In this document: one piece after another, positions 14,957 through 28,195 of the stretch
Numbering within the stretch: position 1 is the stretch's first letter
How the letters are laid out: each line of letters opens with the position of its first letter
Assembly (NCBI RefSeq): GCF_003687455.1
Contig: NZ_PHOA01000014.1
Location: forward strand, 1-32,709
Length of the DNA: 32,709 bases
Direction: 5' to 3'
Origin: Kocuria tytonicola
Lineage (GTDB): Bacteria > Actinomycetota > Actinomycetes > Actinomycetales > Micrococcaceae
Translations under genes and position numbers: made by a program
The notes under the pieces: model-generated
Databases searched by the model: none
What the model was told of the DNA's origin: nothing
Seen by the model: the letters and a program-made list of their open reading frames with translations, nothing else

Positions 14957-16114
14957 TCAGGCGACCCCGGTGTTGAAGGCCAGCCCCAGCAGGTACGTGG
15001 CGATCGCCGCCCCGTAGCCGATCCCCAGCTGCCGCAGACCGCGCATGAGGGGGGATGCGCCGGACAGCAGCCCCACGAAGCCGCCGGTGACCAGCAGCGC
15101 AGCACCCACCAGCGCCATCGCGACCACGAGCGCCGCGCCGCCGCCGAGACCGAACAGGTACGGGAGGATGGGGATCACGGCACCGGAGGCGAAGAAGCAG
15201 AAGCTCGACGCCGCGGCGCCGAGGTCCGTGCCGAGCGCCTGGTGGCCGTCGGCGGGGGAGGGAGCCTCGGCGTCGTCGTCCAGGGCGGCCAGCGCCTTCT
15301 CGTCCCGGTAGGACAGGGAGGGGTCGCAGTCGCAGTCGAAGTGGCCGAGCCGCTCGGCCGCCCGGTGCTCGGCGGCTTCCTCGCTCATGCCGCGGGCACG
15401 GTAGATGAGGGTCAGCTCGTTCGCGTCGAGGTCCAGTGAGGGGGCCACCTGCAGGGTCACCTGGGTGGGCCGGGAGGCGTCCAGCAGCTCGCGCTGGGAG
15501 CGCACGGACACGAACTCGCCTGCGCCCATGGACAGGGCTCCCGCGAGCAGCCCCGCAATGCCGGAGAACAGCACCATGGAGCTGGCCGTGCCGGTGGCGC
15601 CCACGCCCATCACGAGCGCGAGGTTGGAGACGAGGCCGTCGTTGGCGCCGAAGACCGCCGCGCGGAAGTTGCCCGAGAGCCGGGTTCGGCCGTCCGTGGC
15701 CAGCGCGCGGATGATCTCCTCGTGCACGGCCTCGTCCGCCGCCATGGCGTCGGTGGCGTCCGGGTCCTCGCGGTAGGGCGAGCGGGACTCGGCGCGCTGC
15801 AGCAGGGCCAGCACGAACACCGAGCTCACGTGCTTGGCCAGGAACATGAGGATCCTGGCCTGCAGCGCCGGGCGGACCGTACGCCGCGCGTGGGGGCCCA
15901 GCAGGCGGCGCCAGTGCTCGGCGTGGCGGCCCTCGCCCTCGGCCACGCTGTGCAGGATCTCGGCGTGGCGCCCGGTGCTGTTGCGGGCCAGGTGCTCGTA
16001 GGTGGCGGCCTCGGCCAGCTCGTCCGCGAGGTAGTGGCGCCAGCGGCGGATCTGGGCGGGGGTCGGTTCGGGGTTCTCGGGCATGACGGAGGACGCGGTG
16101 CGGGGTGCGGGCAT
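14957..16114 (-). CDS. VIT1/CCC1-family Fe/Mn transporter with N-terminal ferritin-like domain
   Basis: Predicted membrane transporter moving Fe(II) or Mn(II) out of the cytosol. The 385-residue protein has an N-terminal ferritin/rubrerythrin-like helical domain (about 15-150) rich in Glu/His pairs (EAATYEHLARN, EGEGRHAEHW, ADEAVHEEII) that could bind iron. The C-terminal VIT domain has FGANDGLVSNLALVMGVGATG, SMGAGEFVSVRSQREL and three further hydrophobic segments at the end (SSFCFFASGAVIPILPYLFG, VVAMALVGAALLVTGGFVGL, GYGAAIATYLLGLAF). The loop HFDCDCDPSLSYRDE carries two cysteines. TAAGAT lies 8 nt before the ATG with no ribosome site, suggesting a leaderless transcript. The IdeR-like repressor in the same window is a possible regulator, but no operator was seen. 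Confidence 0.9.
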   Translation of the reverse strand: MPAPRTASSVMPENPEPTPAQIRRWRHYLADELAEAATYEHLARNSTGRHAEILHSVAEGEGRHAEHWRRLLGPHARRTVRPALQARILMFLAKHVSSVFVLALLQRAESRSPYREDPDATDAMAADEAVHEEIIRALATDGRTRLSGNFRAAVFGANDGLVSNLALVMGVGATGTASSMVLFSGIAGLLAGALSMGAGEFVSVRSQRELLDASRPTQVTLQVAPSLDLDANELTLIYRARGMSEEAAEHRAAERLGHFDCDCDPSLSYRDEKALAALDDDAEAPSPADGHQALGTDLGAAASSFCFFASGAVIPILPYLFGLGGGAALVVAMALVGAALLVTGGFVGLLSGASPLMRGLRQLGIGYGAAIATYLLGLAFNTGVA

Positions 16115-16243: not shown

Positions 16244-19234
16244 TCAGACCGCCAGCAGGGAGCGGATGTCCTCGGCGTCCAGGCTCGCGGAGAACACGCG
16301 GTCGTCGTCGAGCACCGCGGTGAAGAGGTCCGCCTTGCGGGTCTTCAGCTCCATGACCTTCTCCTCGATCGTGTGCTCGGCGACCATGCGGTAGACCATG
16401 ACCTTCTGGGTCTGCCCGATCCGGTGCGTGCGGTCCACGGCCTGGTTCTCCGCGGCAGGGTTCCACCAGGGGTCCAGCAGGAAGCAGTAGTCCGCCTCCG
16501 TGAGGTTGATGCCGAAGCCGCCCGCCTTGAGGCTCACGAGGAACACGGGGGCCTGCCCGCTGCGAAACTTCTCGAGGGCGCCCGCGCGGTCCCTGGTGCT
16601 TCCGTCCAGGTAGCTGTACGCGATCCCGGCCTCGTCCAGACGGCGGGCCACGAGCTTGAGGAAGCTCGTGAACTGGCTGAACACGAGCGGGCGGTGGCCC
16701 TCCTGGATCAGCTGGGGCAGCTGGTCGAAGAGGACGTCCAGCTTGGAGGAGGACGCCGTGGACCCGGGGTCCACCAGGGCGGGGTCCAGGGCCAGCATCC
16801 GCAGCGTGGTGAGGGACTGGAAGATGGTGAAGCGGTTCTTGTCGAAGTCCCGCAGCAGCCCCAGGATCTTGGCGCGCTCGCGCTGCAGCCGGCGGTCGTA
16901 GGCGCTGCGGTGCTCCGGGTTGAGACCCACGGGCAGCACGTGCTCGAGCTTGGGCGGCAGCTGCAGGTCCACGTCCGCCTTGGTGCGCCGCAGCATGAAC
17001 GGCTTCATCCGGGCGCGCAGCCGTGCCAGCGCGTCCGAGTCCATGGCGCGCTCGATGGGGCGCTGGTAGTGCTCGGTGAAGCGCTTCCGGGACGGGAACA
17101 GGCCGGGGGCGGTGAGGGAGAGCAGGGACCACAGCTCCGAGAGGCTGTTCTCCATGGGGGTGCCCGTGATGGCCAGGGAGGTGCGGGCACGCAGGTTCTT
17201 CACGGCGCGGTACGCCTTGGTGCGGGGGTTCTTCACGAACTGCGCCTCGTCCATGACCACGCCGGCCCACTCCACGGACTGGTAGGCCTCCGCATCAAGG
17301 CGCAGCAGGGCGTAGGAGGTCAGCACCACGTGGGAGGAGCGTGCGGCGCCCGCCGCGGAGTCCTTGGTGGAGTCCAGCACCGTCACGTCCAGGGAGGGTG
17401 CGAAGCGGCGCAGCTCGGCGGACCAGTTGGCCACCACGGAGGTGGGGGCGATCACCAGGTAGGGCGGAAGCTGCGGGTCCCGTGCCGTGGCCCGCAGCAT
17501 CGCGGCAATGGTCTGCACGGTCTTGCCCAGGCCCATGTCGTCCGCGAGCACCCCGCCGAGCTCGTGCTCCCACAGGAAGGTGAGCCACCGGTAGCCCTCG
17601 TACTGGTACGGGCGCAGCGTGGCCTGCAGCTCGGCGGGCACGGGTGGGGAGGGGACCTCCTCCAGGTGCGCGAGGGCCCGGACACCCTCCCGCCAGCGCT
17701 CGGCCTGCTGGGTGTCGGTGGCCAGCTCCTCGAACTGCTCCCAGAGGCTCGTCTGGTACCGGTTCAGCGCGAGCGGGGCGTGCCTGTCCTCCTGCAGCGT
17801 CCGCGCCTCCGCGATCAGGGTGCGCAGCCGCACGAACTCGGGGCGGTCCAGGGAGAAGTAGGAGCCGTCCCGCAGCAGCATCACGTCCTGGCCGCGGTCC
17901 AGGGCCTGGAAGATCTCGGAGAACGGGACGTAGTGCTCCCCGACCTTCACGGTCACCCCCAGGCCGAACCAGTCGTGGTGCTCGGTGGGGGCCGTGGACA
18001 CCGTGATCTCGGTGGGGTCCGCGACCTCCCGGTAGGCGGGGGAACCGCCCGTCTCCTCGATGCGCAGATCCGGGATCCGTCGCAGCTGCGGCAACCACGT
18101 GCGCAGCAGCACGAGCGCGTCCTCCGCGGCGTAGGAGCTGCGCTTGAAGTCCAGCTCCGGAACCCGGCGCTGGACGGCCTGGACCATGGAGGACTCCCAC
18201 CGGGACTCCCTCGCCACGGGTTCGTCCCCCAGCGGGTCCAGCGGACGGAACGGCAGGCGCACCCGCTCCCGGCCCTTCTGGTACTCCCACTCCCACTCCA
18301 CGCGCTCGGTGAGGTCGTCGTGGTGCACGGTCAGCACGAACTCCGGGTCCGCGACCTGCGGCAGGACCAGGGAGTCCTCTTCTGCCGTCACGTGCATGCT
18401 CTGGTGCAGCCGCGGGAAGTAGGTCTCGAAGAACTCCTCCACGCCGTCCCGGGGTACGGTGAGGGACTCCGCCCGGTCCAGGAACGAGCGCTGCTGCTGG
18501 TTCAGACGGGTTCCCAGCACCACGAGGTGCAGCGGGAACCTGTTGAGGTCCTCCGCGGACTCCAGCGCCTCCGGGGTGGCCTCGGGGTGGAAGAGCCCGT
18601 GCCCGGGCTGACCGATGATCCGGGCCCAGCGCAGGGGGATCTCCTCCTCGCCCACGATCAGCTGGGGACGCAGGCAGAGCGCCCCGTGCTCCCCGGCCTC
18701 CACACGGACCTCGAAGCGTCCGTCCCGGTCCAGGACCACGGGGGCCCCGGTGCCGCGGGAGACCAGGGGAATCCCCAGTGTCGCCGCACGGGAGAGAATA
18801 GGCCACAGCAGCGGGGAGGTGTAGCGCTCCACGTGCAGCTGGTGCCGGTCGGCGGCGTAGCTGCCGCGGTGCGACTCGGACAGGGCCCGAAGCTCCTCGA
18901 ACCAGTCGAGCTGCTCCGGGTCCAGCGCACCGCTGCGGGCGTGGGTGGCGAGGTTGCCCCAGTCGATCCCGGTGTGGACCCAGCCACGCCGCCCACGCAG
19001 CACCGGGCGCGCGGTGAGCGTCAGCGGGGTCTCCTCGGGTGATGTCCGCCACGCCCTGGGGGAGCGGTTCTGCACCCGGGCGAGGTCCATCTCGAGTGCC
19101 ACGGCCGGTCCGGAATCGGGGTCCGCCACCACCCGCTCGGCACCGGAGCCCGGCACGATCCGGGAGAGTTCGCTGCGCCAGTCCGGGCCCTCGCCCGGCA
19201 CACGGGCGTCCGGGAACTGCGCAGCACCATCCAT
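16244..19234 (-). CDS. helZ: SNF2-family DEAD-like helicase/ATPase (HelZ-like)
   Basis: Superfamily 2 Swi2/Snf2 ATPase that translocates on duplex DNA or remodels protein-DNA complexes; no specific substrate can be assigned. The 996-residue product has an N-terminal SNF2-associated region (about 1-530, including VEWEWEYQKGRERVRLPF), then SNF2_N with Walker A DDMGLGKTVQTIA (K571), Walker B VVMDEAQFVKN (D662-Q665), TGTPMENSLSELWSLL, and a helicase C domain with VFLVSLKAGGFGINLTEADY and DRTHRIGQTQ near 930-945. Size and order match mycobacterial HelZ (Rv2101). The ATG at 19234 has TACGGT 7 nt upstream and no ribosome site; upstream reading to 19420 is Arg-rich noise. It is divergent from the 1039-residue gene with 286 bp between them, suggesting shared control or function. 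Confidence 0.93.
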   Translation of the reverse strand: MDGAAQFPDARVPGEGPDWRSELSRIVPGSGAERVVADPDSGPAVALEMDLARVQNRSPRAWRTSPEETPLTLTARPVLRGRRGWVHTGIDWGNLATHARSGALDPEQLDWFEELRALSESHRGSYAADRHQLHVERYTSPLLWPILSRAATLGIPLVSRGTGAPVVLDRDGRFEVRVEAGEHGALCLRPQLIVGEEEIPLRWARIIGQPGHGLFHPEATPEALESAEDLNRFPLHLVVLGTRLNQQQRSFLDRAESLTVPRDGVEEFFETYFPRLHQSMHVTAEEDSLVLPQVADPEFVLTVHHDDLTERVEWEWEYQKGRERVRLPFRPLDPLGDEPVARESRWESSMVQAVQRRVPELDFKRSSYAAEDALVLLRTWLPQLRRIPDLRIEETGGSPAYREVADPTEITVSTAPTEHHDWFGLGVTVKVGEHYVPFSEIFQALDRGQDVMLLRDGSYFSLDRPEFVRLRTLIAEARTLQEDRHAPLALNRYQTSLWEQFEELATDTQQAERWREGVRALAHLEEVPSPPVPAELQATLRPYQYEGYRWLTFLWEHELGGVLADDMGLGKTVQTIAAMLRATARDPQLPPYLVIAPTSVVANWSAELRRFAPSLDVTVLDSTKDSAAGAARSSHVVLTSYALLRLDAEAYQSVEWAGVVMDEAQFVKNPRTKAYRAVKNLRARTSLAITGTPMENSLSELWSLLSLTAPGLFPSRKRFTEHYQRPIERAMDSDALARLRARMKPFMLRRTKADVDLQLPPKLEHVLPVGLNPEHRSAYDRRLQRERAKILGLLRDFDKNRFTIFQSLTTLRMLALDPALVDPGSTASSSKLDVLFDQLPQLIQEGHRPLVFSQFTSFLKLVARRLDEAGIAYSYLDGSTRDRAGALEKFRSGQAPVFLVSLKAGGFGINLTEADYCFLLDPWWNPAAENQAVDRTHRIGQTQKVMVYRMVAEHTIEEKVMELKTRKADLFTAVLDDDRVFSASLDAEDIRSLLAV

Positions 19235-19241
19235 GGCGTCT

Positions 19242-19247
19242 ACCGTA
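19242..19247 (-). promoter_or_regulatory. -10 element TACGGT of the SNF2 gene, likely leaderless
   Basis: On the minus strand TACGGT ends 7 nt before the ATG at 19234. The match to TANNNT is complete but no -35 is obvious. Confidence 0.4.
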
Positions 19248-19463
19248 CCGTTCGGCCCGGACACGGGCAGGTGCTGCCGGCAAAGGCCCGGCGCAGCGGC
19301 GGCGTCGGACACGTTGCCCCAGGAGCGGCACTGTCGGACCCGGCGCCGGAGGAGAACCCGGTGGCGGCGGACGCGTCGTCGTCGGCGGGCAGGCCCGGCG
19401 CGCACGGGCTCGTCCGGCACACGGGGGACACGGGGGCCGTGGGACGGGCACGCCGCGGGAACT

Positions 19464-19469
19464 TATACT
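19464..19469 (+). promoter_or_regulatory. -10 element TATACT of the 1039-residue protein gene
   Basis: TATACT matches TATAAT at 5 of 6 positions and lies about 50 nt before the GTG at 19521. This is one of the best -10 elements in the window; no good -35 is seen. Confidence 0.6.
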
Positions 19470-19520
19470 CGGGAGGGACTGAGACGACCAAGAGCGCCCC
19501 TCGGCGCAGACGGAGGATTT

Positions 19521-22500
19521 GTGGCTGACGCTGCCGGTTTCCACACAGGAGACCACGCGATTGCATCCGGACCCCAGGAAGTCGAGTACCTGCGTTGGAA
19601 CGACGCCGTGGCGCGGGCCTTCTTCGGGCCCCGCGTGGCGGGGGAACTGGTCCACCTGGACCTGGACGAGAGGATGCTCGAGCAGATCGGCTCGGAGTTC
19701 GGCCTGGACGGTCCGTCCACCCTGCGGGCGCTCGCGGACTCGGTGACCCCGCTGCTCGTGACAGACGGCTCCCGCCGCTCGCTCTTCGACGCGTTCAACA
19801 AGCTCACCGAGGTCTGGTACCGGATGTCCCGGCGCCAGCTGGAGGACCTCACCAAGATCGGTCCCCCGCCCATCGTGGCGCTGCTCGCACTGCTGTCCCT
19901 GGCCGGACGCCACATGTCCGCGCTCGCGGCGCGCACCGGCAAAAAGTCCGTCTCCACGTTCTACCTCCCGCTGGCCGTGCTGCTGCAGGCCGGGCAGGAG
20001 AACGTCAAGGCGCTCGAGAGCGCCGTGCGCAAGGACACCGAGACCTACTGGGACGCGCTGCGCTACTGGCTCGAGGCCTTCGACGGCCAGCTGGGCCTGC
20101 CCTCGGCCTACGCCGTGAACCACCGGCCCGTGGGCCTGGCGCTCTCCCAGACCCTGTTCGGCCCCTCCGAGCTGCGGCAGCTGCACCAGATGTTCGAGGA
20201 CCTCGAGCTGACCACCGCGCAGGGGATGAGCGCGCAGGAGCTGGGAATCTACATCGACTTCTGGCTGGACATCGCGGACACGGACGTCTCCAAGTCCATG
20301 CGCAGCATCTGGTCCAACCCGCTCACCCGTGACCCCGCCCTGCAGGTGGCGCTCGCGCAGCTGGCCGCGTGGGAGTCCGCCCCGGACGACGACGCCGCGG
20401 GCGCCCCCCGCGGCTCCCGGCACCTGGGCCCCCGCAGCCCCGGGCTGTGCCTCACGGACGGCACGGACTTCGTGGGCAACCCCGTGTACGAGCTGGGCTT
20501 CGTGGTGCCCAAGCGACTGGTCCCGGGCCGTGAGGTGGACCTGGCCACCACGGCCGGCCCACGCACCATGTTCCTGAACTACATCGGGGACGCCTACCTG
20601 GGGATCTCCGCGTACAGCGCGCGCATGACCAACGACACCCTGCTCTCCGGCCAGCTCACGGTCACCGCGGGGGAGCTGACGCTCACCCGCAACCCCCGGC
20701 CCGTGGTGGTGTTCGCGAAGGACGCCTACTCGGACACGTTCCTCTCCGTGGACCACGTGCCCACCGCGTGGCCCTGCCGGATCATGGTGCGGGACGAGCC
20801 GGAGTGGGTGGAGCAGGTCCGGGCCATCCTGGACGACTCCGCCTCCCCGGACTACCGCGAGGTGGCCCCCGGCGAGAACGGCGTGGCCGAGGGCTGGGTG
20901 CTCTTCGACGACGTCCAGGTGCTGCGTGCCGGGGATCCCGCCCTGACCGTGAACGACAACTTCTCGGCCCTCGTGCCCCGGCTCGTGCCCACGCTGACGC
21001 TGTCCGGGGGGCTGCGGATCCCCGGGGACGTGGAGCGCTTCTCCGCACTGCGCCCGCCGCAGCTGACCGTGACCTCGGACAGCGACGACCCCCTGTTCGT
21101 GGAGTGCGAGTGGCGCAACCCGCACTCGTTCAAGCTCATGAGCACCAAGCTCACCCCGTCGCGGGTGCCACCGTTCCAGGTGAGCCTGGGCCGCACGGAG
21201 CTGGCGCTGGCGGACGGGCACCTCAAGCCCAACGACTACACGCTGGTGCTGCGCGCGGGACGCACGGTCAAGCAGCGCCTCGAGTTCCGGGTGCGGGACG
21301 CGTCGTACTACATCACCCAGCGCTCCCTCGGCTACGAGGGCGAGATGGTGCACGTGGCGGAGGAGAGCCTCTGGCCCGTCACCGCCGTCACGCGGGACGA
21401 GCTCCCCGAGCAGTACGTCCAGGGCTCGTTCGACAACATGGACCCGCACGAGGGCGAGTTGCCGGACGCGGAGGTCCCCGAGGTCGCGGGCTGGGAGTCC
21501 GCCGAGGGCCAGATGTTCCCCGAGCGCAGCAACGAGCTGCCCGAGGCCCCGGACGTCTCCTGCATGGTCACGGGCAAGCACAAGGTGGTCCTGCCGCCCA
21601 TGGACCCCAAGGCCAAAGCGCCGTGGGTGTTCGGCCGGTGCAAGTTCTGCGGCCTCACCAAGCGCTATCCCGGCCGCCTCACCAAGCTCTCCGCGGTGGG
21701 CCAGACCGGCTCGGTGGAAGCCCTGCAGTTCATCGGCCCGGACGAGGGGGAGTACCCCGGCTCCTGGGCGCCGTTCAAGGACATGCTCACGTTCCTGGGC
21801 GGGGGCAAGCGCTCCACCCTCTCGATCGTGGCCCGGCAGCTGGAGGACTCCGAGCGCTTCGAGGAGTGGTTCGTGGGCCACCTGCAGGCCCTCGGCTTCC
21901 TGGAGGTCATCCGGGACGAGAACTGGACCGTGCGCCGCTGGCAGGTGTGCTCTCCCGCGCTCACCCAGCTGGTGGACGGCTCCGTGCTGCTCACGGGCGG
22001 GTGGAAGGCCGAGCAGGAGGACGCGGTCACCCGCGCCACCGCGGCACAGGGCGGGGAGGCCGTGGTGCTCTCGCCCGAGGACCACGCGACCACCATGCTC
22101 CAGGACGTGGACCTCGACGCCCTGAGCAGGTCCCTGCCCGAGGGCATGTGCGACGTGGTCTACGACGCCGGGCCCGAGATGCTGGACACCCTCCCGCCGC
22201 TGTCCTCCGTGGTGGCGGGTCTGCCCCTGCGCGAGATGCAGTACAACGGGGTGGCCGAGCGCTTCGTGCCGGCGGACGCCACCTGGGAGGCCACCGAGGA
22301 CCGCAACCAGCCAGGGCTGTACCGGATCAACCACCACCACAAGACGCGCTACGCGTACCGCACGGAGGAGAACGTGGTCTCGGGGCACTGCCGTCCCGTG
22401 TCCTCCGGTCTGGGCAAGCACCTGGTGGCCCGGGACACCGGCACCCCGCTGGTGAGCTACGATCCCGAGCTGCGGCTGCTGTCCGTGCCGATCGGTGCGG

Positions 22501-22640
22501 CCCTGCCGGGCCTGTACGCGCGGGCCGCGGTGCTGTGCTCGGGGCTGCTGCCCACGCTCGTGGACGAGGACTTCTCTCTCAACTACGGGGACGTGTCCGA
22601 GGAGTTCGCCGCGGCCCTCGTGGCCAAGCTCCTGGGCTGA
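19521..22640 (+). CDS. Large protein of unknown function, divergent from the SNF2 helicase
   Basis: A 1039-residue protein I cannot assign to a named family. Visible parts: a helical N-terminal region (about 1-290); a beta-rich middle (about 310-620) with repeated sandwich-like segments (ELGFVVPKRLVPGREVDL, TLVLRAGRTVKQRLEFRVRD); a possible metal site with C681, C707 and C710 (RCKFCGLTKRYPGRL); a winged-helix-like segment (about 760-830, LGFLEVIRDENWTVRRWQV); and a C-terminal region with PGLYRINHHHKTRYAYR and AAVLCSGLLPTL. The last two recall accessory proteins encoded beside helicases in some bacterial defence loci, but this is only an impression. GGAGG at 19512-19516 supports the GTG start. 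A strong terminator overlaps its end. Divergence from the SNF2 gene suggests they act together. Confidence 0.85.
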   Translation: MADAAGFHTGDHAIASGPQEVEYLRWNDAVARAFFGPRVAGELVHLDLDERMLEQIGSEFGLDGPSTLRALADSVTPLLVTDGSRRSLFDAFNKLTEVWYRMSRRQLEDLTKIGPPPIVALLALLSLAGRHMSALAARTGKKSVSTFYLPLAVLLQAGQENVKALESAVRKDTETYWDALRYWLEAFDGQLGLPSAYAVNHRPVGLALSQTLFGPSELRQLHQMFEDLELTTAQGMSAQELGIYIDFWLDIADTDVSKSMRSIWSNPLTRDPALQVALAQLAAWESAPDDDAAGAPRGSRHLGPRSPGLCLTDGTDFVGNPVYELGFVVPKRLVPGREVDLATTAGPRTMFLNYIGDAYLGISAYSARMTNDTLLSGQLTVTAGELTLTRNPRPVVVFAKDAYSDTFLSVDHVPTAWPCRIMVRDEPEWVEQVRAILDDSASPDYREVAPGENGVAEGWVLFDDVQVLRAGDPALTVNDNFSALVPRLVPTLTLSGGLRIPGDVERFSALRPPQLTVTSDSDDPLFVECEWRNPHSFKLMSTKLTPSRVPPFQVSLGRTELALADGHLKPNDYTLVLRAGRTVKQRLEFRVRDASYYITQRSLGYEGEMVHVAEESLWPVTAVTRDELPEQYVQGSFDNMDPHEGELPDAEVPEVAGWESAEGQMFPERSNELPEAPDVSCMVTGKHKVVLPPMDPKAKAPWVFGRCKFCGLTKRYPGRLTKLSAVGQTGSVEALQFIGPDEGEYPGSWAPFKDMLTFLGGGKRSTLSIVARQLEDSERFEEWFVGHLQALGFLEVIRDENWTVRRWQVCSPALTQLVDGSVLLTGGWKAEQEDAVTRATAAQGGEAVVLSPEDHATTMLQDVDLDALSRSLPEGMCDVVYDAGPEMLDTLPPLSSVVAGLPLREMQYNGVAERFVPADATWEATEDRNQPGLYRINHHHKTRYAYRTEENVVSGHCRPVSSGLGKHLVARDTGTPLVSYDPELRLLSVPIGAALPGLYARAAVLCSGLLPTLVDEDFSLNYGDVSEEFAAALVAKLLG

Positions 22641-22777: not shown

Positions 22778-24997
22778 ATGAGCCAGTCCCCGTCCACACC
22801 GCCCGAGCGTGCAGGGTCCTCGCCCCGAGCAGCGACCGACGCCACCTCCACCGCGGCACCCGGATCCCCGGGGGCCGCCGACGCCTCGGCAGCCCTGGAC
22901 GGTTCCGCCTCCCCGAGCACGACGGTCAAGCTGCCGGTGAACTGGCGCGTGCTGATCGCGGCCGCCACGGTCATCGTGGGGCTCTCCGCGTGGGCCATCG
23001 CGGCCCCGGAACAGGCCGACGCCGTGATCGGCGGTGTGGTGGCGTGGGTCGCCTCCCAGCTGGGCTGGTTCTACGTCCTCACCGCCACCCTGGTGATCGT
23101 GTTCGTGTTCGTGATCGCGGTGGCGGTGAGCCGCGGTGGCTCCGTGCGGATGGGACCGGACCACGCCCGCCCGCAGTTCAACATGTTCACGTGGACGGCC
23201 ATGCTCTTCGCGGCCGGCATCGGCGTGGACCTCATGTTCTTCTCGGTCTCCGAACCGGTGAGCCAGTACTTCGCCCCGCCCTCCGGGGACGGTCAGAACC
23301 TGGAGGCCGCCCGCCAGGCCGTGGTGTGGACCCTGTTCCACTACGGCATCACCGGGTGGGCCATGTACGCCCTCATGGGCATGGCCTTCGGGTACTTCGC
23401 GTACCGCTTCGGGATGCCCCTGAGCATCCGCTCCGCGCTGTACCCCCTGCTCGGCAAGCGTATCCACGGGGCCGCGGGCGACGCCGTGGACACCGCAGCG
23501 CTGCTCGGCACCGTGTTCGGGGTGGCCACCTCCCTGGGCATCGGTGTGGTGCAGTTGAACTACGGGCTCAAGACCCTGTTCGGTGTGCCCGAGAACCTTG
23601 CGGTGCAGTCCGCGCTGATCGCCGTGGGCGTGGGCATGGCCGTGGTCTCGTGCGTCTCCGGGGTGGACAAGGGCATCCGGCGGTTGTCCGAGCTGAACAT
23701 CGTCCTGGCCATCGGCCTCATGCTCTACGTGCTGGTGGCGGGGCGCACGGCGTTCCTGCTGGACTCGATCGTGATGAACATCGGGGACTTCGTCGCCCGC
23801 TTCCCGGGGATGACCCTGAACACGTTCGCGTTCGAGGCGCCCCAGGAGTGGATGAGCACGTGGACCCTGTTCTTCTGGGCCTGGTGGATCGCGTGGGCGC
23901 CCTTCGTGGGGCTCTTCCTGGCGCGCATCTCCCGCGGCCGCACGCTGCGCCAGTTCGTGGTGGGCACCATGACGGTCCCGTTCGCGTTCATCCTGCTGTG
24001 GATCTCGATCTTCGGGAACTCCGCCCTGGACATCGTGGTGGGCGGCAACACGGAGTTCGGCGACGTGGCCATGAACACCCCCGAGCGGGCCTTCTACTCC
24101 CTGCTGGAGCAGTACCCCGGCGCCACGGTGGCCGCCTCGATCGCCACGTTCACCGGTCTGCTGTTCTACGTGACGTCCGCGGACTCCGGCGCGCTCGTGA
24201 TGAGCAACTTCACCTCCAAGATCGACGACCCCAACCAGGACGGCCCCAAGTGGCTGCGCGTGCTCTGGGCCGTGAGCACGGGCGTGCTGACGCTGGCCAT
24301 GCTGCTGGTGGGCGGTGTGACCACGCTGCAGAACGCCACGCTCGTCATGGGACTGCCGTTCTCGGTGGTCATGTACCTCATCATGGTGGGACTGTGGCGG
24401 GCCCTGCAGGTGGAGGTCAGCACCGCGGCCTCCGGCGCCGTGGCCAGCCGCTCCGCCGTGGCAGGGCGCACCGGCCGGGACACGCACTGGCGCTCGCGGC
24501 TCTCCCGCCTGGGCTCGTACCCGGGTCCCCGCGCCGCGCAGCGCTACGTGAAGGACGTGGCGGCGCCGGCACTCGAGACGCTCGCGGCGGAGATCCGCGG
24601 TTCCGGGGTCGCGGTCACCGTGGCGACCACGCCGGTGGAGGAGGACCCCGGGCTGCAGCAGACCAGCCTGCACGTGGACCTCGCCCCCGAGCGGGACTTC
24701 CTGTACCGGGTGCACCCCGTGGCGTTCCCCACCCCGGGGTTCGGAGGCTTCCGCACCAACCCGGACTCGGACCGGTACTTCCGGCTGGAGGTCTTCACGG
24801 CCACCGGCTCACTGGGCTACGACGTGCTGGGGTACACGTCCGAGCAGCTCATCAACGACGCGCTCGACTGCTACGAGCGCCACCTGGAATTCATCCGGCT
24901 CAACCACGAGCACCCCGGCAGCACCCAGATCGGCCTTCCCACGACCGAGACGGGGATGTGGGCCGAGACCGCACCGAACAAGGAGGACACACCGTGA
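22778..24997 (+). CDS. betT: BCCT-family choline/betaine transporter (BetT type)
   Basis: Secondary transporter of the betaine-choline-carnitine family importing choline or glycine betaine; choline is likeliest from the downstream genes. The 739 residues have a hydrophilic Ser/Ala/Pro-rich N-terminus (1-50), about 12 membrane segments (55-555) with the family's tryptophan-rich signature at about 365-388 (FFWAWWIAWAPFVGLFLARI), and a hydrophilic C-terminal domain of about 180 residues ending QLINDALDCYERHLEFIRLNHE. Such long tails are typical of BetT and known to sense osmotic strength. The ribosome site is weak (GAAGCGAAG). The stop overlaps the betB start (GTGA), indicating translational coupling. 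Confidence 0.93.
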   Translation: MSQSPSTPPERAGSSPRAATDATSTAAPGSPGAADASAALDGSASPSTTVKLPVNWRVLIAAATVIVGLSAWAIAAPEQADAVIGGVVAWVASQLGWFYVLTATLVIVFVFVIAVAVSRGGSVRMGPDHARPQFNMFTWTAMLFAAGIGVDLMFFSVSEPVSQYFAPPSGDGQNLEAARQAVVWTLFHYGITGWAMYALMGMAFGYFAYRFGMPLSIRSALYPLLGKRIHGAAGDAVDTAALLGTVFGVATSLGIGVVQLNYGLKTLFGVPENLAVQSALIAVGVGMAVVSCVSGVDKGIRRLSELNIVLAIGLMLYVLVAGRTAFLLDSIVMNIGDFVARFPGMTLNTFAFEAPQEWMSTWTLFFWAWWIAWAPFVGLFLARISRGRTLRQFVVGTMTVPFAFILLWISIFGNSALDIVVGGNTEFGDVAMNTPERAFYSLLEQYPGATVAASIATFTGLLFYVTSADSGALVMSNFTSKIDDPNQDGPKWLRVLWAVSTGVLTLAMLLVGGVTTLQNATLVMGLPFSVVMYLIMVGLWRALQVEVSTAASGAVASRSAVAGRTGRDTHWRSRLSRLGSYPGPRAAQRYVKDVAAPALETLAAEIRGSGVAVTVATTPVEEDPGLQQTSLHVDLAPERDFLYRVHPVAFPTPGFGGFRTNPDSDRYFRLEVFTATGSLGYDVLGYTSEQLINDALDCYERHLEFIRLNHEHPGSTQIGLPTTETGMWAETAPNKEDTP

Positions 24998-26487
24998 GCA
25001 GCACGCTGTACATCGACGGCCAGTGGGTCCCCGCCCTGCAGGGCGGCACCCGCACCATCACCTGCCCCGCGGACGGCACCGAGGTGGCCGTCGTCGCCGA
25101 GGCCACCCGCGAGGACACCGAGCGCGCGATCGGCGCGGCCCGCGTGGCCTTCGACGACGGCCGCTGGTCGGACGTCCCCGCGGGGGAGCGCGGCGGCTTC
25201 CTGCTGCGCGTGGCCGCCCTGCTGCGCGAGCGCGCCGAGGAGTTCGCCCGCGCCGAGTCCCTGGACACCGGCAAGCGCATGGACGAGTCCCGCCAGGACA
25301 TCTCGGACATCGCGGACTGCTTCGAGCACTTCGGCAGGATCGCCGCGCAGGACGCGGGCCGCGTGGTGGACGCCGGGAACCCGGACGTGGTCAGCCGCGT
25401 GGTCCACGAGCCCGTGGGTGTGTGCGGTCTCATCACCCCGTGGAACTACCCGCTGCTGCAGGCCGCGTGGAAGATCGCACCCGCGCTCGCGGCGGGCAAC
25501 ACGTTCGTGCTCAAGCCGGCCGAGCTCACGCCCCACACGGCCATCCTCATGATGCAGGTGCTCGAGGAGCTGGGGCTGCCCGCGGGTGTGGCCAACCTCG
25601 TGCTGGGTGCCGGGGCGGAGGCCGGCGCGCCGCTGTCCTCCGACCCCCGCGTGGACCTCGTGTCCTTCACCGGCGGGCTCGTGACCGGCCGTGTGGTCGC
25701 CCGCGAGGCCGCGGCCACCGTCAAGAAGGTGGCCCTCGAGCTGGGCGGCAAGAACCCCAACGTCGTCTTCGCGGACGCGGACTACGACGCCGCGCTGGAC
25801 AACGCCCTGAACGCCGCGTTCGTGCACTCGGGGCAGGTCTGCTCCGCCGGAGCGCGGCTGGTGGTGGAGGAGTCCATCGCGGAGAAGTTCGTGAGCGATC
25901 TCGCGGCGCGCGCGGAGGCCATCCTGCTGGGCGGCCCGTTCGACGAGAAGGCCGAGACCGGCGCGCTGATCTCCGAGGCGCACCGGGACAAGGTGCACGC
26001 CTACGTGGAGCGTGCCCGCGAGCAGGGTGCGCGCATCCGCTGCGGCGGCCGCTTCGCCGAGGGGCCCTCCGCGGACGGAACGCTGCAGCTCGAGAACGGC
26101 TGCTTCTACCTGCCCACGGTGATCGACGAGTGCACCCCGGACATGGACTGCGTGCACGACGAGGCCTTCGGCCCCACCGTGACCGTGGAGACCTTCCGCA
26201 CCGAGGAGGAGGCCGTGGCGATCGCCAACGACACGTACTACGGCCTGGCCGGCGCCGTGTGGAGCCAGGACTCGGGCAAGTCCCAGCGGGTGGCCGGGAA
26301 GCTGCGCCACGGCACCGTGTGGATCAACGACTTCCACCCCTACCTGCCGCAGGCGGAGTGGGGCGGCATGAAGCAGTCCGGCGTGGGCCGCGAGCTGGGC
26401 CACGACGGGCTGGGGGAGTACCAGGAGACCAAGCACGTCTACCAGAACGTCCGACCGGCCGTCACCGGGTGGTTCGCGCAGCACTGA
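24994..26487 (+). CDS. betB: Betaine aldehyde dehydrogenase
   Basis: NAD(P)-dependent aldehyde dehydrogenase (EC 1.2.1.8) oxidising betaine aldehyde to glycine betaine. The 497-residue protein has the NAD-binding motif (CGLITPWNYPLLQAAWKIAP), catalytic Glu249 (LELGGKNPNV) and nucleophile Cys283 (SGQVCSAGAR), 34 residues apart as in the family, and WINDFHPYLPQAEWGGMKQSG near the C-terminus. One family member difference: the usual FTGS after the NAD site reads FTGG here. AAGGAGGAC precedes the GTG, which overlaps the betT stop. Close homologues act on other aminoaldehydes, but the operon makes betaine aldehyde the best substrate. Confidence 0.93.
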   Translation: MSSTLYIDGQWVPALQGGTRTITCPADGTEVAVVAEATREDTERAIGAARVAFDDGRWSDVPAGERGGFLLRVAALLRERAEEFARAESLDTGKRMDESRQDISDIADCFEHFGRIAAQDAGRVVDAGNPDVVSRVVHEPVGVCGLITPWNYPLLQAAWKIAPALAAGNTFVLKPAELTPHTAILMMQVLEELGLPAGVANLVLGAGAEAGAPLSSDPRVDLVSFTGGLVTGRVVAREAAATVKKVALELGGKNPNVVFADADYDAALDNALNAAFVHSGQVCSAGARLVVEESIAEKFVSDLAARAEAILLGGPFDEKAETGALISEAHRDKVHAYVERAREQGARIRCGGRFAEGPSADGTLQLENGCFYLPTVIDECTPDMDCVHDEAFGPTVTVETFRTEEEAVAIANDTYYGLAGAVWSQDSGKSQRVAGKLRHGTVWINDFHPYLPQAEWGGMKQSGVGRELGHDGLGEYQETKHVYQNVRPAVTGWFAQH

Positions 26488-26532
26488 GCGCGGCGCACCA
26501 CCGCGCCGGGCCCGCCCCGGCGCACCGGCCGA

Positions 26533-26584
26533 CGACGCCGCGCCCGTCCCGTTCGTAGCACACGGACGGGCGCGGGCGGCGTCG
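26533..26584. other. Strong hairpin inside the betT-betB-codA operon
   Basis: CGACGCCG plus CGCCCGTCC (26533-26549) pair with GGACGGGCG (26564-26572) and CGGCGTCG (26577-26584), giving 17 bp with a 4-nt bulge and a 14-nt loop. There is no U-tract. It lies in the 121-bp betB-codA gap and could lower codA expression by partial termination or stabilise processed mRNA. Confidence 0.6.
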
Positions 26585-26608
26585 CACACCCCGACGAAGG
26601 GAGAAGAC

Positions 26609-28195
26609 ATGAGCGAGAAGAACACCCTGGCCGAGTACGACTACGTGGTGGTGGGGGCTGGCTCCGCCGGCGCCGTGGTCGCCGCGCGCCTGAGCGAGGA
26701 TCCGAGCGTGTCCGTGGCCCTGCTGGAGGCCGGCGACCACGACGCCGGGTACCCCGAGGTGCTGCAGCTCAACCGCTGGATGGAGCTGCTGGAGTCCGGC
26801 CACGACTGGGACTACCCGCTGGAGGAGCAGGAGAACGGCAACTCCTTCATGCGCATGGCCCGTGCCAAGGTGCTGGGCGGCTGCTCGTCCCACAACTCCT
26901 GCATCGCGTTCTGGGCGCCGAGCGAGGACCTGGACGAGTGGGAGTCCAAGCACGGGGCGCAGGGCTGGAACTCCGAGCTGGCGTTCCGGCTGTACCAGAA
27001 GCTGGAGAACAACGAGGACCCGGGCGCCCACCACGGCCACGACGGCCCCGTGCGGCTGCGCAACGTGCCGCCGGCGGACCCGAGCGGCGTCGCCCTGCTG
27101 GAGGCGGCCGAGCAGGCCGGGATCCCGCGCGCGGACTTCAACACGGGCAAGACCGTGACACAGGGCGCGAGCTTCTTCCAGATCAGCGCCCGAGAGGACG
27201 GCACGCGCTCCTCCTCATCCGTGAGCTACCTGCACCCCGCGCAGGACCGTGAGAACCTCTCGATCCTCACGGGCACCCAGGTCAAGCGGGTGCTCTTCGA
27301 CGAGGACCTCCGCGCCACCGGTGTGGAGGTCACGGACAACGCGTTCGGCAAGGCCCACGTGATCTCCGCGCGCCGCGAGGTGGTCGTCTCCGCCGGGGCG
27401 GTCGACACCCCCAAGCTGCTCATGCTCTCCGGCATCGGCCCCGCCGAGCACCTCTGCGAGGTGGGCGTGGACGTCCTGGTGGACTCCCCGGGCGTGGGCT
27501 CGCACCTGCAGGACCACCCGGAGGCGGTGATCCAGTGGGAGGCGAAGAAGCCCATGGTGGAGGACACCACCCAGTGGTGGGAGATCGGCGTGTTCGACCA
27601 GGTGGACGAGGGCCTGGACCGCCCGGATCTGATGATGCACTACGGCAGCGTGAACTTCGACATGCACACCTACCGCCAGGGCTATCCCACGGCGGACAAC
27701 GCGTTCTGCCTGACCCCGAACGTGACCCACGCCCGCTCCCGCGGCACCGTGCGGCTGCGCACGCGTGACTTCCGGGACAAGCCCCGTGTGGATCCCCGCT
27801 ACTTCACGGATCCCGAGGGCTACGACATGCGCATCATGACGGCGGGCATCCGCCGCGCGCGGGAGATCGTGGCGCAGCAGGGCATGTCCGAGTGGGCCGG
27901 CAGGGAGCTGTTCCCCGGGGAGGACGTGCAGAGCGACGAGGAGATCGCGGACTACATCCGCCGCACCCACAACACCGTGTACCACCCGGCGGGCTCGTGC
28001 CGCATGGGTCCGGTGGAGGACGCGGACTCGCCCCTGGACCCGCAGCTGCGGGTCAAGGGTGTGAGCGGGCTGCGCGTGGCGGATGCCTCCGTCATGCCGG
28101 AGCTCGTGACCGTGAACCCCAACATCACCGTCTACATGATCGGTGAGCGGGCCGCGGAGCTGATCGCGGCGGACCACGGGGCCGGGCAGCAGTAG
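26609..28195 (+). CDS. codA: Choline oxidase (GMC oxidoreductase)
   Basis: FAD flavoprotein oxidising choline to betaine aldehyde and on to glycine betaine with O2, releasing H2O2 (EC 1.1.3.17). The 528 residues closely follow the Arthrobacter globiformis enzyme from memory: N-terminal FAD site VVVGAGSAGAVVAARLSE, WMELLESGHDWDYP, and His95 in GGCSSHNSCIAFWAP, the residue that binds FAD covalently. The active-site set known from that enzyme is present: Ser97, Glu305 (DHPEAV), His344 (MMHYGS), His459 (TVYHPAG) and Asn503 (TVNPNITV). This favours oxidase over choline dehydrogenase (BetA), which is similar but lacks much of the shared sequence. AGGGAG precedes the ATG. It ends the choline operon and is followed by a 20-bp hairpin. 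Confidence 0.92.
   Translation: MSEKNTLAEYDYVVVGAGSAGAVVAARLSEDPSVSVALLEAGDHDAGYPEVLQLNRWMELLESGHDWDYPLEEQENGNSFMRMARAKVLGGCSSHNSCIAFWAPSEDLDEWESKHGAQGWNSELAFRLYQKLENNEDPGAHHGHDGPVRLRNVPPADPSGVALLEAAEQAGIPRADFNTGKTVTQGASFFQISAREDGTRSSSSVSYLHPAQDRENLSILTGTQVKRVLFDEDLRATGVEVTDNAFGKAHVISARREVVVSAGAVDTPKLLMLSGIGPAEHLCEVGVDVLVDSPGVGSHLQDHPEAVIQWEAKKPMVEDTTQWWEIGVFDQVDEGLDRPDLMMHYGSVNFDMHTYRQGYPTADNAFCLTPNVTHARSRGTVRLRTRDFRDKPRVDPRYFTDPEGYDMRIMTAGIRRAREIVAQQGMSEWAGRELFPGEDVQSDEEIADYIRRTHNTVYHPAGSCRMGPVEDADSPLDPQLRVKGVSGLRVADASVMPELVTVNPNITVYMIGERAAELIAADHGAGQQ

What the first reader, a model, noticed from the sequence alone, without database searches (positions are those of the whole stretch)
19235..22640. 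Divergent HelZ-like SNF2 helicase and an unrecognised 1039-residue protein as a possible two-gene system
A complete SNF2/HelZ-type ATPase and a very large uncharacterised protein are transcribed back to back from a 286-bp region containing -10-like elements for both. The large protein combines a helical N-terminus, beta-rich repeats, three clustered cysteines (C681, C707, C710), a winged-helix-like segment and a C-terminal region that, to me, resembles helicase accessory proteins of bacterial defence loci. No other DNA-modification or nuclease gene is nearby, so this could be a compact two-component nucleic-acid-processing or defence module. Co-function is inference from gene order.
Basis: partly seen in the sequence, partly recalled or inferred. 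Interest (0 to 1): 0.65.

Follow-up and report, generated by a model that had tools for sequence, protein, structure and literature searches.

The report
Orphan Druantia DruF-DruL protein beside SNF2
The large unknown protein is a piece of the anti-phage system Druantia that has lost its usual helicase partner and become a fixed, well-conserved chromosomal gene in the bacterial genus Kocuria, always back to back with an unrelated DNA motor, so an immune part seems to have been kept for a new or reduced role.

Summary
In detail: a complete SNF2 ATPase (16244-19234, -) and a 1039-aa protein (19521-22640, +) diverge from a 286-bp gap. The large protein is not unrecognised: it is a full-length Druantia DruF with DruL fused at its C-terminus. 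All 29 other DruF/DruL loci that I fetched in the class have the helicase DruE alongside. The Kocuria locus does not: 27 of 27 genomes carry this orphan, always divergent from the SNF2 gene, and 1 of 27 has a full-length DruE, next to a second DruF copy. The orphan copies form one clade beside DruE-linked copies of the same family, with dN/dS near 0.12 in five close pairs. Losses of otherwise conserved residues fall in the DruF half (window: 20 of 54 against 0 of 37). The SNF2 gene belongs to a widespread family: 142 of 149 family genomes have a relative, and SNF2 proteins without DruF score as well on the same defence models. So this is a domesticated, DruE-less Druantia adaptor. A substitute helicase is likely; whether SNF2 or a resident YprA-type helicase is untested.

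The parts
19521..22640 (+). Orphan fused DruF-DruL gene, 1039 aa, GTG start with a conserved Shine-Dalgarno sequence
   Evidence: PADLOC DruF2 model PDLC00023 E 1.6e-164 over residues 22-1035 (positions 8-1007 of 1011); residues 782-1035 match DruL4 PDLC00057 E 7.7e-21; no Pfam, NCBIfam or PHROGs match
19521..21497 (+). DruF half (residues 1-659): the part that lost residues conserved in DruE-linked homologues
   Evidence: window departs at 20 of 54 conserved columns here against 0 of 37 in the DruL half; boundary agrees with the DruF/DruL gene split in L077
21498..22637 (+). DruL half (residues 660-1039) with zinc-site residues C681, H687, C707, C710
   Evidence: four residues identical in 29 of 29 rows; zinc binding is inference
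19235..19520 (.). 286-bp divergent intergenic region with separate conserved elements: TATACT at 19464-19469 (+) and TACGGT at 19247-19242 (-), the latter 7 nt before the SNF2 ATG
   Evidence: alignment of 10 Kocuria regions; promoter role is inference; strict scan negative
16244..19234 (-). SNF2-family ATPase, 996 aa
   Evidence: Pfam SNF2-rel_dom and Helicase_C over their cut-offs; relatives in 142 of 149 family genomes; 18 Kocuria rows form one clade
14957..16114 (-). VIT-family gene, left neighbour (context only)
   Evidence: Pfam VIT1 E 4.2e-54; present in 17 of 18 Kocuria loci, but 1.2 kb or more from SNF2 in 13 of these 17

Best explanation
Shown: the 1039-aa protein is homologous, over its full length, to the DruF and DruL subunits of Druantia type II/IV fused into one chain. 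Kocuria keeps it as a lone, constrained chromosomal gene back to back with an SNF2 gene, without the DruE helicase that accompanies every other copy I examined. Inferred: it was left behind when DruE was lost in the ancestor of Kocuria. DruF-DruL is the recognition or activation subunit of Druantia. In Kocuria it still binds its target (nucleic acid or a nucleic-acid complex) through the conserved zinc-bearing DruL half, and hands it to a helicase other than DruE, the contact having been remodelled in the DruF half. I think the divergent SNF2 translocase is the more likely substitute, with the resident YprA-type helicase second. The product is a genus-fixed genome-surveillance or restriction activity.
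For: Family. DruE alongside in 29 of 29 fetched DruF/DruL loci outside the Kocuria core locus: 13, 7, 9; two of these DruE confirmed by PADLOC. With four DruE queries at E<=1 the window and 18 Kocuria loci give one chance-level hit (E 0.53), while the same queries hit all 9 control loci, three of which supplied queries. Full-length DruE in 1 of 27 Kocuria, G299, at its second DruF copy. Orphan and SNF2 divergent in 27 of 27 genomes. The genes beyond vary: on the right the choline-gene block lies in the same orientation in 9, inverted in 4 and not found in the fetched flank in 5 of 18 loci; on the left 1.2-3.3 kb separate SNF2 from the VIT gene in 13 of the 17 loci with a VIT gene, under 0.2 kb in 4. 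One clade (100/100; 100), grouped with DruE-linked Micrococcaceae copies (SH-aLRT 99). dN/dS 0.11-0.13 in five close pairs, below SNF2 in the same pairs (0.15-0.25). GC3 follows that of SNF2 in 8 of 8 loci compared, 0.57 to 0.99. Asymmetric residue loss.
Against: No direct evidence of contact or co-function between the two proteins. SNF2 relatives exist without DruF across the family. Each gene seems to have its own upstream element, so no co-regulation is shown. AlphaFold models were poor (mean pLDDT 39.7 and 57.7), so binding surfaces are unknown. The half-boundary for the residue-loss test was set after a first block scan, although it agrees with the L077 gene split; in the group test it holds for boundaries 560-700 (p 0.003-0.025) and not at 740 or 780 (p 0.075, 0.28). 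Of DruE-linked rows tested singly, L078, L126 and L127 also lean that way at p<0.05. Low dN/dS is not special: the choline dehydrogenase-like neighbour is lower (0.07-0.11), and in one pair (L009-L016) DruFL is slightly above SNF2 (0.039 against 0.033).
Confidence: 0.47

Rival explanations
1. The orphan DruF-DruL works in trans with the resident YprA/MrfA-type helicase of Kocuria (DEAD, Helicase_C, HRQ1 winged helix, MZB), the same helicase class as DruE; its neighbourhood to SNF2 is accidental.
For: Each of 27 Kocuria genomes has a match to the helicase motifs of DruE outside the true DruE, in an open frame of 764-936 aa in 24 of 27; the window genome's copy on contig 77 has DEAD, Helicase_C, WHD_HRQ1 and MZB domains. 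In print, MSMEG_6160 and MRA_3684, resident DUF1998 helicases, replace DruE in a type III Druantia and MSMEG_6160 binds DruH (PMC13316683, section 2.4 read).
Against: That precedent is for DruH, not DruF. The residues lost lie in the DruF half, which would be odd if a DruE-like contact were kept there. Lone YprA helicases are described as DNA-repair-related (PMC12458937, passage), so this one probably has its own job; I did not test its presence in genomes without DruF.
Confidence: 0.24
2. The pair is today an active anti-phage or anti-plasmid system in which SNF2 replaces DruE, that is, a compact Druantia variant rather than a housekeeping unit.
For: DruF family; SNF2-type proteins are named parts of Zorya, DISARM and Dpd (PADLOC names) and ARMADA has a Swi2/Snf2-type helicase (PMC12458937, passage); strict co-retention.
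Against: Fixed in 27 of 27 genomes, one clade, GC3 like the neighbouring SNF2 gene, and no island around it: of 10 further window proteins scanned only PcrA matched PADLOC models, as a generic UvrD helicase. Defence systems are described as patchy (PMC8565338, passage), and DruF relatives elsewhere are (13 of 297 order genomes, own included).
Confidence: 0.2
3. The orphan is kept for a function without any helicase, such as regulating the neighbouring gene, or blocking invading Druantia-bearing elements by occupying DruE as a decoy.
For: Absence of DruE with retention of the partner; losses in the DruF half could turn it into a non-productive binder.
Against: One Kocuria (G299) carries both the orphan and a DruFL-DruE locus, so exclusion is not absolute. 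No known domain was recognised in the protein.
Confidence: 0.07
4. It is a decaying remnant of a lost Druantia system.
For: No DruE at the locus; the draft copies in G297 and L018 are broken.
Against: Full-length open frame in 25 of 27 genomes, the two exceptions being drafts of 79% and 76% completeness; dN/dS about 0.12 in close pairs; conserved upstream and ribosome-binding blocks.
Confidence: 0.02

Closest known systems
Druantia type IV (DruE, DruF, DruL; PADLOC, PMC8565338, passages seen)
   Same: Carries DruF and DruL homology
   Different: DruF and DruL are one chain; no DruE at the locus; fixed in a genus instead of patchy; SNF2 gene next door
Druantia type II (DruM, DruF, DruG, DruE)
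   Same: Best match is to the long DruF2 models PDLC00023 and PDLC00016, which include the DruL-like part
   Different: No DruM, DruG or DruE found at the locus
DruE-linked fused DruFL of Micrococcaceae (L126-L130)
   Same: Nearest relatives in the tree, 30-34% identical over almost the full length
   Different: Followed by DruE; GC3 0.50-0.70 (not compared with their hosts)
Micrococcaceae SNF2 helicases (PADLOC DpdE/ZorD-like)
   Same: Same leading PADLOC models in 4 control proteins
   Different: The controls have no DruF neighbour; NCBIfam cut-offs for ZorD, DpdE, DrmD not reached by the window protein

Membership tests
Druantia (any type) | DruE, the helicase shared by all subtypes (PMC13192584, passage) | tested here: not met
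   Four DruE queries at E<=1: one chance-level hit (E 0.53) in window and 18 Kocuria loci; full-length DruE in 1 of 27 Kocuria genomes, at another locus
Druantia (any type) | Patchy distribution between close relatives (PMC8565338, passage) | tested here: not met
   27 of 27 Kocuria, always beside the same SNF2 gene
DruF protein family | Full-length match to a DruF model | tested here: met
   PDLC00023 E 1.6e-164, residues 22-1035 on positions 8-1007 of 1011
DruL protein family | C-terminal match to a DruL4 model | tested here: met
   PDLC00057 E 7.7e-21, residues 782-1035 on positions 43-299 of 309; L077 has the two halves as separate genes
Druantia type II | DruM and DruG beside DruF and DruE | tested here: not met
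   None among 12 window proteins scanned with PADLOC; not every window ORF was scanned
SNF2 ATPase family | SNF2 and Helicase_C domains over the curated cut-offs | tested here: met
   225 bits against 24.9 and 73.5 against 23.5
DpdE (Dpd system) | NCBIfam DpdE equivalog cut-off of 500 bits | tested here: not met
   61.9 bits; PADLOC PDLC02851 scores 665 here and 668-733 in 4 control SNF2 proteins without DruF
ZorD (Zorya) and DrmD (DISARM) | NCBIfam equivalog cut-offs 1500 and 950/610 bits | tested here: not met
   225.5, 76.7 and 32.8 bits
Two-component SNF2-DruFL defence module | Physical or functional dependence of the two products | not testable with these tools
   Only gene order was measured

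The most novel reading that the evidence does not exclude
Druantia without Druantia's core: the recognition subunit DruF-DruL was uncoupled from DruE, the one component common to all Druantia types, re-partnered with a chromosomal SNF2 translocase, and fixed as a permanent genome-surveillance unit of the genus Kocuria. Target recognition in Druantia would then be a portable module that can drive a motor of another helicase family.
Probability: 0.3. Interest if true: 0.72.

Novelty: new variant of a known kind. Interest (0 to 1): 0.5.

Why it matters
Recent work treats DruE as the conserved core of Druantia and the subtype proteins as its triggers (PMC13192584, passage). PADLOC lists DruF and DruL as of unknown function. 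A lineage that lacks the core but keeps the trigger under purifying selection gives a clean natural experiment on what DruF-DruL does alone, with 27 genomes, DruE-linked relatives for swaps, and residue changes that point to the surface that changed. It would also add a case of an immune component turned into a core bacterial gene.

Tried and rejected
Dpd, Zorya or DISARM membership of the SNF2 gene: rejected, because four control SNF2 proteins without DruF score as high or higher on the leading model and NCBIfam cut-offs fail.

Structure: AlphaFold on the full protein with 17 Kocuria rows gave mean pLDDT 39.7, on the C-terminal 380 residues 57.7. Foldseek against PDB with the second model found nothing at E<=0.001. 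VIA-align rows for model residues 143-223 are headed by eIF1/aIF1-like folds at Z 6.5 or less, under the level at which I would trust them. No PDB sequence relative: phmmer's only row was E 0.44, the profile search gave none up to E 1.

Viral copies: three IMG/VR scans found no relative. Plasmids: 2 of 72,556 records match, 24-26% identity.

Not followed: three weak DruF-like scraps (G414, G794, G1017; open frames of 81-212 aa) were not fetched and are not in the 29. Among the 29, at least L115-L117 and L132-L134 have DruF and DruL as separate genes or only one of the two matched, so DruE can lie one gene away from the matched part. Open frames of 2129-2261 aa with weak DruE-motif matches in 7 of 27 Kocuria genomes (G298, G299, G305, G308, G313, G318, G322) were not identified further; they are not universal.

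Mended on checking: I first took the VIT gene for an equally tight neighbour of SNF2. One search shows that it is not (13 of 17 loci have 1.2-3.3 kb between, with a 350-520-aa frame in 12 of these 13), which slightly favours the SNF2-DruFL link, and I moved the odds a little (best reading 0.45 to 0.47).

Dropped rows: purU dN/dS for two pairs (L007, L008) was an alignment artefact and ignored; sucC gave no rows there. L079, the second SNF2 copy of G302, fell out of the SNF2 tree because its best single match was too short. L018 is a broken draft copy. L111, nearly identical to L074, was left out of the 29-row set, as was L131, which is split. The query I called BADH was read in a frame without NCBIfam match and is not used in any count. 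Pairs with saturated dS (window against L011, L014: dN/dS 0.43-0.61) are not quoted as estimates.

Literature searches. DruF together with Druantia occurs in 1 paper of the library; Kocuria together with Druantia in none. So an orphan DruF is not in print as far as these searches of open-licence papers go.
Full report
What is there. The window is contig 55 of a 2.6-Mb, 239-contig genome whose nearest named relatives at this locus are Kocuria (93% identical DruFL in K. rhizophila TA68 and K. tytonis). The SNF2 gene occupies 16244-19234 on the minus strand (996 aa) and the large gene 19521-22640 on the plus strand (1039 aa), with 286 bp between. Surrounding genes look ordinary: pcrA, sucC, purU and a VIT-family gene on the left; a BetT choline transporter, a choline-dehydrogenase-like gene (below its NCBIfam cut-off) and a glycosyltransferase on the right.

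The large protein is DruF-DruL. Pfam, NCBIfam and PHROGs have nothing for it. PADLOC gives DruF2 over residues 22-1035 at E 1.6e-164 and DruL4 over residues 782-1035 at E 7.7e-21. In one relative, L077, the two halves are separate genes followed by DruE, so the long form is a fusion of the DruF and DruL that PADLOC lists as two subunits of Druantia IV (PMC8565338, passages).

The partner is missing. I fetched 29 loci of DruF or DruL homologues outside the Kocuria core locus: 12 from the order sample plus the second copy of Kocuria G299, 7 from the class sample, 9 from the family sample. All 29 have a DruE-like gene on the same strand, directly following the fused gene or, in the split forms, at most about one gene away. 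Two were checked against PADLOC and are DruE2; the others match the DruE of L066 at about 32-64% identity. In the Kocuria core locus four DruE queries find one chance-level hit, E 0.53, in the window and 18 loci, while the same queries find all 9 control loci (three of these supplied queries). Genome-wide, a full-length DruE is in 1 of 27 Kocuria genomes, G299, at its second DruF copy; the other matches, of 36 bits or less, are confined to helicase motifs.

The orphan is a fixed, constrained gene. It is in 27 of 27 Kocuria genomes, as one full-length frame in 25; the other two are drafts of 79% and 76% completeness. It is always divergent from the SNF2 gene. Outside Kocuria, DruF relatives are rare and scattered: 13 of 297 genomes in the order sample, own included, 10 of 394 in the class sample, own included, 39 of 395 in the family sample, of which 27 are Kocuria. 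The tree puts the core copies in one clade, joined to DruE-linked copies from the same family (SH-aLRT 99, quick search, midpoint root), on a stem of about 1.5 changes per column; root-to-tip paths from the joint are about 1.6-1.8 for the core and 0.95-1.4 for the DruE-linked group. Within the genus evolution is slow: dN/dS 0.11-0.13 in five close pairs against 0.15-0.25 for SNF2 in the same pairs; the choline-dehydrogenase-like neighbour is slower still, 0.07-0.11. GC3 of the orphan is close to that of SNF2 in 8 of 8 loci, from 0.57 to 0.99. The DruE-linked relatives L126-L130 have 0.50-0.70, which I did not compare with their hosts.

Where it changed. Against 15 DruE-linked rows, the window departs from conserved columns at 20 of 54 in the DruF half and 0 of 37 in the DruL half (p 5e-6); the other eight core rows lean the same way (p 5e-6 to 6e-3). 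The five DruE-linked family rows lose 7-9 of 54 and 0-4 of 37; two of the five reach p<0.05 singly, as a group they do not (13 of 54 and 7 of 37, p 0.62). With these five added to the reference the core group gives 19 of 52 and 4 of 40, p 0.004. In an earlier set, of eight DruE-linked groups or rows taken as focal only L078 reached p<0.05. I chose the boundary after a first block scan; the group result holds for boundaries 560-700 and fades at 740 and 780. The zinc-site residues C681, H687, C707 and C710 are identical in 29 of 29 rows. That the DruF half carries the helicase contact is inference.

The SNF2 gene. It is an intact SNF2 ATPase. Relatives at E<=0.001 occur in 142 of 149 Micrococcaceae genomes. 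In 20 non-Kocuria loci fetched, a VIT gene lies within the flank in 4 and sucCD in 3 of these, which hints at a shared ancestral region. The 18 Kocuria copies form one clade. Its PADLOC DpdE score is matched or beaten by four SNF2 proteins without DruF. I infer that SNF2 was there first and that DruFL came to stand beside it in the Kocuria ancestor. Since then the pair has held while both outer sides moved: on the right the choline-gene block is in the same orientation in 9 (2 of them fragments), inverted in 4, not found in the fetched flank in 5 of 18 loci; on the left 1.2-3.3 kb lie between SNF2 and the VIT gene in 13 of 17 loci and under 0.2 kb in 4. In 10 intergenic regions each gene has its own conserved upstream block; the block beside SNF2 would suit a leaderless transcript (established actinobacterial pattern, recalled).

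How it most likely works. Published work assigns DNA processing to DruE and triggering to the subtype proteins (PMC13192584, passage). DruF-DruL should therefore be the recognition or activation part. Kept without DruE, it must act alone or with another motor. SNF2 is favoured by the unbroken linkage. The resident YprA-type helicase is favoured by kinship with DruE and by the finding that such resident helicases can replace DruE for DruH (PMC13316683 section 2.4). I give the first 0.47 as part of the full statement and the second 0.24.

Verdict. Druantia membership fails on its defining component, so I do not call this a Druantia system. It is a DruE-less, domesticated DruF-DruL, a new variant of a known kind. 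The biochemical role and the partner are untested.

Noticed in passing
window 22778-28195 and L003-L020: The choline transporter (BetT) and choline-dehydrogenase-like genes downstream of DruFL are in the same orientation in 9, inverted in 4 and not found in the fetched flank in 5 of 18 Kocuria loci; in L005 and L006 (K. marina) the transporter matches only in fragments.
   Followed up: partly
L078 (G299 C4:144601-164600): A second, DruE-linked DruF-DruL locus in one Kocuria genome, with a further 2129-aa YprA-like frame some kb away: possibly a defence island.
   Followed up: partly
L129 and L130: Beside DruFL-DruE in two Micrococcaceae genomes lie a frame of about 2030 aa with YprA-like helicase motifs and a 759-aa frame, possibly a second related defence system in tandem.
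   Followed up: no
Kocuria genomes G298, G299, G305, G308, G313, G318, G322: Open frames of 2129-2261 aa match DruE helicase motifs weakly; perhaps Druantia III or related systems.
   Followed up: no
L079 (G302 C1:885201-905200): One Kocuria carries a second SNF2 homologue, about 46% identical, without a DruF neighbour.
   Followed up: partly
window 19503-19523: The leader stretch GGCGCAGACGGAGGATT before the DruFL start is almost invariant in 10 Kocuria, longer than a Shine-Dalgarno sequence needs.
   Followed up: no
G309 C1:2062730-2065712: The SNF2 gene of this Kocuria matches in two overlapping pieces in different open frames near its N-terminus, a frameshift or a sequencing error.
   Followed up: no
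L005, L009, L010, L012-L020, between the VIT and SNF2 genes: A frame of roughly 350-520 aa stands between VIT and SNF2 in 12 Kocuria loci but not in the window; it was not identified.
   Followed up: no
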